DNA from: Zhihengliuella flava
Lineage (GTDB): Bacteria > Actinomycetota > Actinomycetes > Actinomycetales > Micrococcaceae
DNA: 64,000 nt
NCBI RefSeq assembly: GCF_015751895.1
Contig: NZ_JADOTZ010000001.1
Span: forward strand, 62,001 to 126,000
Direction: 5' to 3'
The number at the start of each line of letters is the position of its first letter. Position 1 is the stretch's first letter. Below the pieces are notes generated by a model. That model worked only from the letters and a program-made list of their open reading frames with translations. It searched no databases and had not been told where the DNA came from. Position numbers and translations under genes: made by a program. Shown here in pieces: positions 36,431 through 40,712 of this stretch.

Positions 36431-37942
36431 ATGAGCTACATCATTGCGATCGATCAAGGAACCACGTCGAGCCGGGCGATCGTCTTCGACCACGAAGGCA
36501 ACATCGTGTCGGTCGGCCAGAAGGAACATGAACAGATCCTGCCCAAGGCCGGATGGGTGGAGCACGACGCCGCGGAAATTTGGACGAACGTTCGTGAGGT
36601 GGTCGGCCAAGCGCTGTCTCGGGCGAACCTGACCCGCCACGACATCGACTCGGTCGGCATCACGAACCAGCGCGAAACGGCGGTGGTCTGGGACCGCACC
36701 ACAGGTGAGCCTGTCTATAACGCCATCGTGTGGCAAGACACGCGGACCCAGAGCATCGTTGATGAGCTCGCCTCCGATGGCGGGACTGACCGGTACAAGG
36801 ACCGCGTCGGCTTGCCGCTGGCGACCTATTTTTCAGGCACCAAGATCAAGTGGATCCTCGACAACGTCGACGGAGCGCGGGAGCGCGCCGAGGCCGGCGA
36901 TCTGATGTTTGGCACCACCGATTCGTGGGTGCTGTGGAATCTGACCGGCGGAACCGACGGCGGCGTCCACGCTACCGACGTGACGAACGCGTCGCGCACC
37001 CTCTTTATGGATCTGGACACGTTGACGTGGAACACGGACATCCTGGCGGACTTTGGGGTGCCGGAATCGATGATGCCCGAGATCCGCTCCTCGTCCGAGA
37101 TCTACGGGCACGTCGCGGGGTCACAATTGCTGCGCGAAGTGCCGGTGGCCGGCATCCTCGGTGACCAGCAGGCGGCCACGTTTGGGCAGGCGGCCTTCGG
37201 CAAGGGCGCGGCCAAGAACACGTACGGCACCGGCTGCTTCTTGATCTTCAACACGGGCGAGGAGATCGTCCACTCCGAGAACGGCCTGCTGACCACGATC
37301 GCTTACAAGCTCGGCGAAGAAAAGACGGTGTACGCGCTCGAGGGATCCATCGCGGTGGCCGGTTCGCTCGTCCAATGGTTCCGGGATCAGCTGGGGATCA
37401 TTTCCAGCGCTCCGGAGATCGAGGAGTTGGCGGACCAAGTCGAGGATAACGGCGGTGTGTACATTGTCCCGGCCTTCTCGGGTCTGTTCGCGCCCCATTG
37501 GCGCCCCGAGGCTCGCGGAGCCATCGTCGGCTTGACCCGATTCGCCAACAAGAATCACCTGGCGCGCGCGGCACTGGAGGCCACAGCCTTCCAGACCCGC
37601 GAGGTGCTGGACGCGGTGAATTCGGACGCGGGAGTGCCGCTGAACGAACTGCGCGTTGATGGCGGCATGGTTGCCAATGACGCGCTCATGCAATTCCAGT
37701 CGGACATCCTCGGGGTGCCGGTGGTTCGTCCGAAGATCATCGAGACAACAGCCCTCGGTGCCGCGTACGCGGCGGGTCTGGCCACCGGGTTCTGGAATGA
37801 CTTGGGTGAACTGACGGCCAAGTGGGCCGAGGATCAGCGGTGGGAGCCGAGCATGGACTCCGAAGAACGCGATCGTCAGATGCGCCTGTGGAAGAAGGCC
37901 GTGGACCGCACGCTGGACTGGGTCGACGAGGATGTGAAGTAG
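36431..37942 (+). CDS. glpK: Glycerol kinase
   Basis: ATP-dependent phosphorylation of glycerol to glycerol 3-phosphate. The 503-residue FGGY-family kinase has [19 protein letters not shown] at the N-terminus, [27 protein letters not shown] and the C-terminal [19 protein letters not shown]. Ribosome-binding site AAAGGAGA. It completes a pathway of entry (GlpF), phosphorylation (GlpK) and oxidation (GlpD). Confidence 0.98.
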
Positions 37943-37979: not shown

Positions 37980-38013
37980 GGACGACGACGGCGGTGCCGC
38001 GCCGTCGTCGTCC
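37980..38013 (+). terminator. Hairpin terminator of the glp operon
   Basis: A perfect 14-bp stem (37980-37993 with 38000-38013) with a 6-nt loop lies 38 nt past the glpK stop, without a U-tract. It ends 14 nt before the leuS -10. Confidence 0.7.
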
Positions 38014-38026
38014 GCTCGGGGTGCTG

Positions 38027-38032
38027 TAAACT
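38027..38032 (+). promoter_or_regulatory. -10 element of leuS (leaderless leader peptide)
   Basis: TAAACT lies 7 nt before the ATG of the Leu-rich leader peptide at 38040. No ribosome-binding site precedes that ATG, so the RNA probably begins at the peptide start. Confidence 0.55.
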
Positions 38033-38039
38033 GGCGGGC

Positions 38040-38066
38040 ATGGTATTGCGCCTAGCCCTACGTTGA
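38040..38066 (+). CDS. leuS leader peptide MVLRLALR
   Basis: ATG-GTA-TTG-CGC-CTA-GCC-CTA-CGT-TGA encodes eight residues, three of them leucine, two by the rare CTA codon and one by TTG. Position directly after a promoter and before an attenuator marks it as the ribosome-stalling sensor for charged tRNA-Leu. It is too short for a normal gene search. Function is inference from the classical attenuation design; attenuators before leuS have been predicted in some Streptomyces. Confidence 0.7.
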   Translation: MVLRLALR

Positions 38067-38083
38067 CCGCGTGGAGACGCTCC

Positions 38084-38131
38084 CGAGGGGACGTCGACGC
38101 GCGGTTCGCCCCTTGCCTGCAAGGGGCTTTT
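38084..38131 (+). promoter_or_regulatory. leuS transcription attenuator (antiterminator plus terminator)
   Basis: The terminator is an 8-bp stem GCCCCTTG (38108-38115) with CAAGGGGC (38120-38127), loop CCTG, followed by TTTT (38128-38131). Its left arm CCCCTTG can pair instead with CGAGGGG at 38084-38090 (seven pairs, one G-U), which forms an antiterminator. A ribosome stalled on the Leu codons upstream would favour the antiterminator and allow leuS transcription. All parts are visible in the sequence; the switching is inferred. Confidence 0.75.
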
Positions 38132-38213
38132 GCATGTATTGGCCATGCCTGGCCGGTCCCGAGAGTGGGACGAGCCGACGCACCACGTACCGACAGTGAA
38201 GGTGAAACAACAC

Positions 38214-40712
38214 GTGAGCACGCAGCCCAGCGAAGCGACCCCCAGCGGCACCGCGTACGACTTCCGCGACATCGAATCTCAGTGGGCACCGGTCTGGGAG
38301 GACCTCGGTGTCTTCACGCCGGCCGACGACGGAAGCCGTGAGCGTCGCTACGTGTTGGATATGTTCCCGTACCCCTCCGGCGACCTCCACATGGGCCACG
38401 CCGAAGCCTTTGCCATGGGTGATGTGGTGGCCCGCTACTGGAACCAGTGCGGATATGACGTGCTGCATCCCATTGGGTGGGACTCCTTCGGTTTGCCGGC
38501 CGAAAACGCGGCGATCAAACGGGACGCCCACCCCGCCGAGTGGACCTACAAGAACATCGATACCCAGGCGGCGTCGTTCAAGCGCTATGCCATCAGCGCC
38601 GACTGGTCCCGGCGGCTCCACACCTCGGATCCCGAGTACTACCAATGGACGCAGTGGTTGTTTAACCGCTTTTACGAGAAGGGGCTGGCGTACCGCAAGA
38701 ACCACCCCGTGAATTGGTGCCCGAAGGACCAGACCGTGCTCGCCAATGAGCAGGTGGTTGACGGTGCGTGTGAGCGGTGCGGCACGGCCGTGACCAAGAA
38801 GAGCCTGAACCAGTGGTACTTCAAAATTACCGACTACGCTGACCGCCTGCTGGAAGACATGGAGCAGTTGAAGGGCCACTGGCCCGAACGCGTCCTCACC
38901 ATGCAGAAGAACTGGATCGGACGCTCGGCCGGCGCGCACGTCACCTTCCGGGTCGAGGCCGCCGCAGGCCGCGACGAGGAATCAGTGACCGTCTTCACCA
39001 CGCGTCCCGACACGCTCTACGGAGCGACGTTCTTCGTGGTCGCGGCGGACGCGGAACTCGCCGATCGGCTCGTCACCGACGAACAGGCCGGAGCGCTGGC
39101 CGACTACCAAGAGCGGGTGAAGGCCCTCAGCGAGATCGAGCGCCAATCCACGGAGCGAGAAAAGACGGGCGTCTTTACCGGCCGCTACGCCATCAACCCG
39201 CTCTCCGGTGAGCGGCTCCCCGTGTGGGCCGCTGACTACGTCCTGGCCGATTATGGAACCGGCGCTATCATGGCGGTACCGGCTCACGACCAGCGTGACT
39301 TGGACTTCGCCAAAACCTTCGACCTGCCCGTGCGCGTCGTCGTGGATACGGGCGAAGAGGACCCGGCCCAGACGGGCGTTGCCACAGCCGGCGACGGTCA
39401 GCTGATCAATTCTGGCGAGCTCGACGGACTCGACAAGGCGGCGGGCATCGAGCGGGCCATTGCCCTCGTCAGCGAGGCCGGAACCGGCGAGAAGACCATC
39501 AACTATCGACTGCGCGACTGGCTGCTCTCCCGCCAGCGCTTTTGGGGGACGCCGATCCCGATCATTCACTGCGGTGACTGCGGCGAGGTGCCCGTTCCGG
39601 ATGAGCAGCTGCCGGTGCGCTTGCCGGATAATCTCCGCGGTGAGGCGCTCGCCCCGAAGGGCACGAGCCCGCTGGCGGCGGCCGAAGACTGGGTCAACGT
39701 GGACTGCCCGTCGTGTGGTGGGGCCGCCACGCGTGATACCGACACGATGGACACCTTCGTCGATTCGTCCTGGTACTTCCTGCGCTTCGTGTCGCCGCAG
39801 TACACGGATGGCCCGTTTGATCCGGAGGCAGTCCGCCAGTGGATGCCCGTCGGCCAATACGTCGGCGGCGTTGAGCACGCCATTTTGCATCTGCTCTATG
39901 CGCGATTCTTTACCAAGGTGATCTACGACCTCGGGCTCATCGACGCTACGGAGCCCTTCGCCGCGCTGCTGAATCAGGGTCAGGTGCTCAACGGGGGCAA
40001 GGCGATGAGCAAGTCGCTCGGCAACGGTGTCGACCTCGGCGAGCAACTGGATCGGTACGGTGTCGACGCCGTGCGCTTGACCATGGTCTTTGCTTCGCCG
40101 CCGGAAGACGATGTGGACTGGGCCGACGTTTCGCCGTCGGGCTCCGCGAAGTTCCTCGCGCGGGCGTGGCGACTCGCGGGCGACGTCACCAGTGAGCCGG
40201 GGTGCGACGCCTCTGCGGGGGACACCGCTCTGCGCTCGGTGACCCACAAGGCCGTTGCCGAGGCCACGGAACTCATCGAAAACGGCAAATTCAATGTGGT
40301 GGTCGCCAAGGTGATGGAACTGGTCAACGCCACCCGTAAGGCCATCGACTCCGGGGCGGGAGGCGCCGATCCGGCGACCCGTGAGGCGGTTGAGGCCATC
40401 GCGATTGTCTTGAGTCTCTTCGCGCCCTACACCGCGGAAGACATGTGGGCACGCTTAGGGCACGAACCGTCCGTCGCGCGCGCCGGGTGGCCCTCGGTCG
40501 ACGAGGCGTTGCTGGTGGATGAGACGGTCACCGCCGTTGTTCAGATTAAGGGGAAAGTCCGGGACCGGCTGGAGGTCTCGCCCGAGATCAGCGAATCCGA
40601 GCTGGAGGCCGCCGCGATGGCGTCGCCCGTCGTACAGCGAGTGCTGGGCGGAGAACCGCCGCGCAAGGTGATTGTCCGCGCACCGAAGCTCGTCAACATC
40701 GTCCCGGCGTAG
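38214..40712 (+). CDS. leuS: Leucyl-tRNA synthetase
   Basis: Charges tRNA-Leu. The 832-residue class Ia synthetase has the HIGH-type motif [10 protein letters not shown] (near 57), the CP1 editing domain (about 230-420, [13 protein letters not shown]), a zinc-like CGDCGEVP segment, and the KMSKS loop [13 protein letters not shown] (near 600). GTG 38214 gives [12 protein letters not shown] and follows GAAGGTGAAAC. The frame is open back to 38130, but that lies in the attenuator. degV starts 10 nt downstream. Confidence 0.96.

What the first reader, a model, noticed from the sequence alone, without database searches (positions are those of the whole stretch)
38027..38213. Complete classical attenuator with a minimal leaderless Leu peptide before leuS
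A -10 element, an 8-residue peptide with Leu at three of eight positions (two CTA, one TTG), an antiterminator arm and a U-tract terminator follow each other within 105 nt. The terminator arm 38109-38115 can pair either with 38120-38126 or with 38084-38090, so the two structures exclude each other. The peptide starts at the predicted 5' end of the RNA, so the sensing ribosome must load on leaderless RNA. Attenuators before leuS are predicted for some Streptomyces; a peptide this short in a Micrococcaceae-like genome seems little described.
Basis: partly seen in the sequence, partly recalled or inferred. Interest (0 to 1): 0.72.

Follow-up and report, generated by a model that had tools for sequence, protein, structure and literature searches.

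The report
Leaderless leucine-sensing switch before leuS
Just before the gene for the enzyme that loads leucine onto tRNA lies an eight-codon open reading frame that probably acts as a leucine gauge; the same design recurs across many actinobacteria and is already known from Streptomyces, but it lacks the competing RNA hairpin that textbook attenuators use.

Summary
In detail: a -10 box 7 nt before an ATG, an 8-codon ORF (MVLRLALR*) and a U-tract terminator stand before leuS. It is conserved. A covariance model of the region finds 159 of 295 family genomes and 117 of 345 class genomes. In all 128 family genomes that I could check it lies 52-257 nt upstream of leuS. In 88 of 88 leuS-type copies the in-frame codon starting 8 nt before the base of the first hairpin (P1) is Leu, and in 85 it is CTT or CTA, both rare in leuS.

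Its GAGGGG arm is peculiar to this species within the genus. Complements to the terminator's 5' arm are scarcer than in shuffles, and covariation shows only P1 and the terminator, side by side.

It is a short-peptide member of the leaderless leuS attenuator published for Streptomyces (LeuL2; Seliverstov 2005). Best reading: a ribosome waiting at the control Leu codon masks the lower stem of P1, and P1, once free, favours termination at the abutting terminator. The P1 step is inferred; no expression data exist here.

The parts
38027..38032 (+). -10 element TAAACT, 7 nt before the start codon; predicts a transcript whose 5' end is the ATG
   Evidence: in 88 leuS-type copies a -10-like hexamer lies 6 nt (67) or 7 nt (20) before the start in 87 (86 TANNNT, 1 CATCCT); the mean -10 to TSS distance in S. 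lividans is 6.3 nt (PMC8079986, passage)
38040..38066 (+). leaderless leader ORF MVLRLALR*, 8 codons and stop TGA
   Evidence: 51 of 88 leuS-type copies have exactly 8 codons, 21 have 11
38058..38060 (+). control codon CTA (Leu 7), 8 nt before the model's base of P1 (38066)
   Evidence: in-frame Leu at this distance in 88 of 88 (CTT 73, CTA 12, CTC 3); CTA is 3.0% of Leu codons in 30 long ORFs of the window and 0 of 63 in its leuS
38065..38106 (+). P1 hairpin: 38065-38073 pairs with 38098-38106; its 5' arm takes in the last bases of the stop codon
   Evidence: minimum free energy; covariation; pair at the third stop-codon base G-C in 24 rows, A-U in 4
38108..38131 (+). intrinsic terminator: 8-bp stem 38108-38115 / 38120-38127, then TTTT; 1 nt from the 3' arm of P1 in the fold
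   Evidence: by model columns the spacer is 1 nt in 72 of 88 copies
38084..38090 (+).
38214..40712 (+). leuS, leucine--tRNA ligase, start GTG

Best explanation
A leucyl-tRNA-sensing, ribosome-mediated transcription attenuator that controls leuS. Transcription starts at the A of the ATG, so a ribosome loads on the bare 5' end and translates eight codons. At codon 7, a rare Leu codon, it pauses when leucyl-tRNA is short. With that codon in the A site its leading edge (about 12 nt ahead; recalled value) covers the invariant lower five base pairs of hairpin P1, so P1 cannot close. When leucyl-tRNA is plentiful the ribosome reaches the stop codon at the foot of P1 and leaves; P1 closes beside the terminator, and transcription ends before leuS. 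I infer that P1 itself promotes termination (as a pause hairpin or by stacking on the terminator) and that masking it gives read-through; no antiterminator takes part. Shown by sequence: promoter position, ORF, control codon, P1, terminator, their fixed spacing and conservation. Inferred: stalling, release, the effect of P1, regulation by leucine. I put the attenuator reading as such at about 0.85 and the P1 step at about 0.4.
For: Same layout in the genus and across the class; 128 of 128 checked matches lie just upstream of leuS on its strand. The control codon is the constant residue: Leu 8 nt before P1 and in frame in 88 of 88, CTT or CTA in 85, while the two codons before it are mostly CTC or CTG and CTT is 2.1% and CTA 0.4% of Leu codons in leuS of 29 named loci. 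P1 and terminator covary (55 two-sided changes against 13.5 in shuffles; the nine highest-ranked pairs are all P1 or terminator pairs). The invariant block of P1 (model columns 27-31, 92-100% conserved) is the stretch such a ribosome would cover; most of the upper stem varies. A footprint of 26 nt centred on the codon, as assumed for M. tuberculosis ilvB1 (PMC13236596, passage), would cover it too. The model found copies encoding MRAVRLLLSEPR, the peptide published as LeuL2, transcribed leaderless before leuS in S. lividans (PMC8079986, passages).
Against: No transcript, reporter or leucine-response data for this organism. The terminator remains in the predicted fold when the ribosome-covered RNA is removed (92 of 93), so pairing energies do not explain why read-through should follow. 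One relative (L048) has the ORF, the Leu codon and the terminator but no visible P1. In the LLL-type peptides a stall at the first Leu would leave P1 free. The model has no match in 136 of 295 family, 289 of 396 order and 228 of 345 class genomes; one variant form (L166) was seen among the unmatched genera.
Confidence: 0.6

Rival explanations
1. Classical trp-type attenuator: a stalled ribosome lets 38084-38090 pair with the terminator's 5' arm, so that an antiterminator replaces the terminator.
For: The 7-bp pairing exists in the window. Seliverstov 2005 calls the Streptomyces leuS leaders classical and names antiterminator hairpins (two of three parts of the text read; figure not held).
Against: The arm is not conserved; best helices with the terminator's 5' arm are 3 bp or less in 76 of 93 copies against about 38 expected from shuffles, and 3 or less in 19 of 20 further copies. 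No third covarying helix. The 3' arm of P1 plus terminator loop folds slightly worse than with shuffled loops.
Confidence: 0.12
2. P1 opposes termination: a ribosome waiting at the earlier Leu codons leaves P1 free and transcription reads through, while a ribosome at the stop codon masks P1 and the terminator acts (the order of events proposed for M. tuberculosis ilvB1, PMC13236596, passages).
For: The stop codon lies at the foot of P1 in the 8-codon copies, so a ribosome there would mask the whole 5' arm; most peptides have further Leu codons at 5 and 6.
Against: The constant, rare codon is the last one, from which the ribosome would itself mask the lower stem; P1 and terminator are compatible in 87 of 93 folds.
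Confidence: 0.15
3. The stalled ribosome acts directly on RNA polymerase or blocks the terminator by closeness, and P1 is only a pause or spacer.
For: In L048, without P1, the terminator stem starts about 7 nt after the stop codon.
Against: In the 88 model-aligned copies P1 separates the ORF from the terminator, and P1 is kept by covariation.
Confidence: 0.15
4. No regulation: an ordinary leaderless small ORF and a constitutive partial terminator.
For: No expression data.
Against: Rare Leu codon at a fixed distance in 88 of 88 copies and placement before leuS in 128 of 128 checked.
Confidence: 0.05

Closest known systems
LeuL2 leader of Streptomyces lividans leuS (SLIV_24828; PMC8079986, passages read)
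   Same: Leaderless transcript, Leu-rich short peptide, hairpin and U stretch, upstream of leuS; the model built mainly from Micrococcaceae-like copies finds copies encoding the published peptide MRAVRLLLSEPR
   Different: 12 codons there, 8 here; here the stop codon stands where the longer form continues, and forms the base of P1; the control codon is CTA, not CTT as in the Streptomyces-like copies
Predicted leuS attenuators of S. coelicolor and S. avermitilis (Seliverstov et al. 2005, PMC1262725, parts 1 and 2 of 3 of the text read)
   Same: Leader peptide and terminator before leuS
   Different: They report an antiterminator; none is conserved in the copies examined here
ilvBNC attenuator of Corynebacterium glutamicum (PMC11857589, outline and passages)
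   Same: Leader start codon one nucleotide from the transcription start, CUU Leu control codon, terminator
   Different: 15-residue peptide; a three-hairpin model (antiantiterminator, antiterminator, terminator) supported by mutations; other gene
E. coli trp attenuator (recalled)
   Same: Ribosome position on a control codon decides termination
   Different: Shine-Dalgarno start, stop codon between the arms of the first hairpin, conserved antiterminator

Membership tests
Leaderless leuS leader-peptide attenuator (LeuL2 kind) | short Leu-containing ORF upstream of leuS | tested here: met
Leaderless leuS leader-peptide attenuator (LeuL2 kind) | ORF starts at the transcript's first base | tested here: inconclusive
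   -10 placed for it in 87 of 88 copies; no 5'-end data here; mapped by others in S. lividans
Leaderless leuS leader-peptide attenuator (LeuL2 kind) | hairpin plus U stretch before leuS | tested here: met
Leaderless leuS leader-peptide attenuator (LeuL2 kind) | matches the same covariance model as copies with the published Streptomyces peptide | tested here: met
   (E 5e-7 to 1e-5 for most of those copies); convergence is not excluded
Classical (trp-type) attenuator | control codons for the cognate amino acid at a fixed distance from the first hairpin | tested here: met
   88 of 88
Classical (trp-type) attenuator | conserved antiterminator that excludes the terminator | tested here: not met
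Classical (trp-type) attenuator | amino-acid-dependent read-through | not testable with these tools
   needs reporter or 3'-end data
T-box or other Rfam leader | match to an Rfam model at gathering score | tested here: not met
   only a tRNA in the window
[quoted passage not shown]
   the gene here is leuS; no pseudoknot search was made

The most novel reading that the evidence does not exclude
Actinobacteria have a class-wide attenuator design, used before leuS and also ilvB and a citramalate synthase gene, that needs no antiterminator: a ribosome on a bare 5' end, stopped at one rare codon at a fixed distance, gates a hairpin that must form beside the terminator for termination to work.
Probability: 0.35. 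Interest if true: 0.75.

Novelty: new variant of a known kind. Interest (0 to 1): 0.52.

Why it matters
It extends a leader known in print from Streptomyces to about a third of the sampled class genomes (117 of 345) and reduces it to what stays constant: a leaderless start, one rare Leu codon, P1 and a terminator usually 1 nt away. The missing antiterminator makes a clear, testable question of how ribosome position is turned into read-through, and the fixed 8-nt codon-to-hairpin distance gives a ruler for finding such leaders before other genes.

Tried and rejected
Rejected: the antiterminator reading. Rejected: an antiterminator made by the 3' arm of P1 and the terminator loop; folding energies were weaker than with shuffled loops (mean -4.16 against -4.58 kcal/mol). 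Rejected as uninformative: a transcription-pause signature (pyrimidine then G, 10-13 nt after P1, in 85 of 88 against 58 expected), because that stretch overlaps the conserved terminator stem. Considered and dropped: pairing of the P1 3' arm with the U-tract seen in single folds; it could form only after RNA polymerase has passed.

Model limits: at E up to 0.01 some matches are tRNA genes followed by a terminator (L228, L229, L235, read by eye), so the genome tallies hold a few false hits. Rows dropped: 100 model matches, minus these 3 and 4 duplicates, gave 93; minus 5 ilvB- or citramalate-type copies gave 88. The model was built from 28 of the copies, and counts made on its alignment lean towards its structure. 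One search used the 128 family matches whose leuS row was also printed; the other printed matches (22 by my count) and those not printed (159 genomes matched in all) were not checked. In one search one of 20 rows (L263) was misassigned by my script, its helix count included; its sequence reads MRAVRLLLSEPR with CTT. In one search one row (L125) was aligned 3 nt inside its GTG start, which explains its missing -10 and makes its ORF one codon too short. Fourteen genera without a model match were looked at with one genome each: 13 upstream regions of roughly 330-480 nt read by eye, one gene cut off; one variant element (L166), one doubtful (L167), none seen in the other 11. Of the 80 named loci, four hold under 150 nt upstream of the match (L070, L075, L088, L121).

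Paper searches that bear on novelty: (open-licence library only). None listed a title or abstract about a Micrococcaceae leuS leader; of the papers opened, only PMC1262725 and PMC8079986 were seen to describe leuS leaders. (NusG and terminators) was a search listing only; PMC3890552 and PMC8914203 were searched for leuS (0 occurrences). A note in the notebook gives 30 of 80 named loci; the right number is 29.

Full report
Observation. The predicted minimum-energy fold holds two adjacent hairpins, P1 (38065-38073 with 38098-38106) and the terminator, at -48.1 kcal/mol (z -3.8). The gene downstream is leuS (TIGR00396), starting at GTG 38214. The window is part of a 2.9-Mb genome in one contig.

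Conservation near by. The genus holds five genomes here. All five have the -10, an 8-codon ORF, Leu at codon 7 and the CCCCTTG/CAAGGGG terminator. The peptides are MVLRLALR, MVVPPVLR, MVLRPALR, MVLRPVLR and MDLSLQLT; besides Met 1 only Leu 7 is constant. Farther relatives have MNAVLLLS, MRAILLLS, METTLLLR and the like; one branch has MNPKRNLV and similar, again with CTA as codon 7.

Breadth. A covariance model from 28 copies matches 159 of 295 family genomes (18 of 32 genera), 107 of 396 in the order sample (41 of 109 genera) and 117 of 345 in the class sample (51 of 127 genera). Weak matches include a few tRNA genes and ilvB-type leaders. For 128 family genomes whose leuS position was also printed, every match lies 52-257 nt upstream of leuS on the same strand. 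It matched 29 of 80 named leuS loci (four of the 80 hold under 150 nt upstream), among them Arthrobacter, Paenarthrobacter, Nocardioides, Nonomuraea, Actinomadura and Microlunatus. No copy was found by script or model in Kocuria rhizophila, two Yaniella and Acaricomes. The Glutamicibacter copy (L056) was found by script but not by the model.

What is constant. In 88 leuS-type copies: a -10-like hexamer 6 or 7 nt before the start in 87; start ATG 71, GTG 16; 8 codons in 51, 11 in 21; P1 and terminator 1 nt apart in 72. The codon starting 8 nt before the base of P1 is Leu and in frame in 88 of 88 (CTT 73, CTA 12, CTC 3, never CTG), whereas the two preceding codons are mostly CTC or CTG (58 and 53 of 88). 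CTT and CTA make 2.1% and 0.4% of Leu codons in leuS of 29 named loci, all 29 with CTT as control codon, and 5.6% and 3.0% in 30 long ORFs of the window. Twenty further class-level copies, chosen from the 117 matched genomes, gave CTT in 19 by script and in the twentieth by reading.

Structure. On the 28-row alignment 93.1% of cells pair, with 55 two-sided changes against 13.5 in shuffles. The lowest P1 pair of the model uses the third base of the ninth (here stop) codon: TAG with C in 24 rows, TGA with U in the 4 of the window's kind. Mutual information over 93 copies ranks nine P1 and terminator pairs first and shows no third helix; the alignment was fitted to the model, so this confirms rather than discovers. 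P1 and terminator coexist in 87 of 93 folds.

No antiterminator. Over 93 copies the longest complement to the terminator's 5' arm is 3 bp or less in 76, against about 38 expected; in 20 further copies it is 3 or less in 19. Removing the RNA covered by a ribosome at the last Leu codon leaves the terminator in 92 of 93 folds. So the defining switch of a classical attenuator was tested and not met, although the element most likely works like one in sensing leucyl-tRNA.

Mechanism. A ribosome with the control codon in its A site should reach about 12 nt ahead (recalled), which is the fifth base of P1; model columns 27-31 are 92-100% conserved while most of the upper stem varies. This fits a ribosome that keeps P1 open while it waits. 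Since P1 and terminator do not compete, I infer that P1 helps termination; pausing, stacking and Nus factors are possible means, none tested. The rare control codon fits the recalled idea that leader codons are those whose tRNAs lose charge first. Exception: L048 lacks P1.

What is known. Seliverstov 2005 predicted leuS attenuators in two Streptomyces. In S. lividans LeuL2 (MRAVRLLLSEPR) is leaderless, before leuS, with hairpin and U stretch (PMC8079986, passages). Eight unnamed class-level copies (L260-L267, presumably Streptomyces) encode MRAVRLLLSxPR, six of them the exact peptide (L263 by reading). The window element therefore belongs with this published leader as a shorter form; leaderless branched-chain leaders are also known in corynebacteria (PMC5784534, PMC11857589, passages). 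New here, as far as my searches go: the breadth, the fixed rare codon, the missing antiterminator and the shared design with ilvB-type leaders.

Same design elsewhere. Four model matches stand before acetolactate synthase genes and one (VAHKALLIT*) before citramalate synthase. The window's genus has a leaderless-looking ilvB leader, MQNIITVLRVTKRVA* in the window's own genome.

Noticed in passing
G000:C1 about 381.5-381.8 kb (L248, minus strand): The genus's ilvB has an ATG 7 nt after a -10-like AAAACT with TTGACA upstream, encoding MQNIITVLRVTKRVA* in the window's own genome, followed by a terminator-like hairpin and a T run, read by eye (four of the five genomes aligned).
   Followed up: partly
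L239, L240, L231, L227: Leaderless 8-codon (in L227 longer) leaders such as VARILVLP* with a similar hairpin-plus-terminator layout stand before acetolactate synthase genes.
   Followed up: partly
L221 / L246: A leader VAHKALLIT* of the same design stands before a citramalate synthase gene (TIGR00977); no specific paper search was made.
   Followed up: partly
window 37980-38013: A 14-bp perfect inverted repeat (GGACGACGACGGCG / CGCCGTCGTCGTCC) just before the leuS promoter covers where a -35 would lie; probably the end of the preceding gene (ORF 36431-37942). A similar repeat is seen by eye in the genus.
   Followed up: no
downstream of the U-tract, e.g. L031 about 1378-1387: TGTGTC followed by GG is conserved after the terminator in many family members though no structure found here needs it.
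   Followed up: no
L048: A relative with MYSQFHLL* and a terminator stem about 7 nt after the stop codon, with no P1: a natural test of whether P1 is needed.
   Followed up: no
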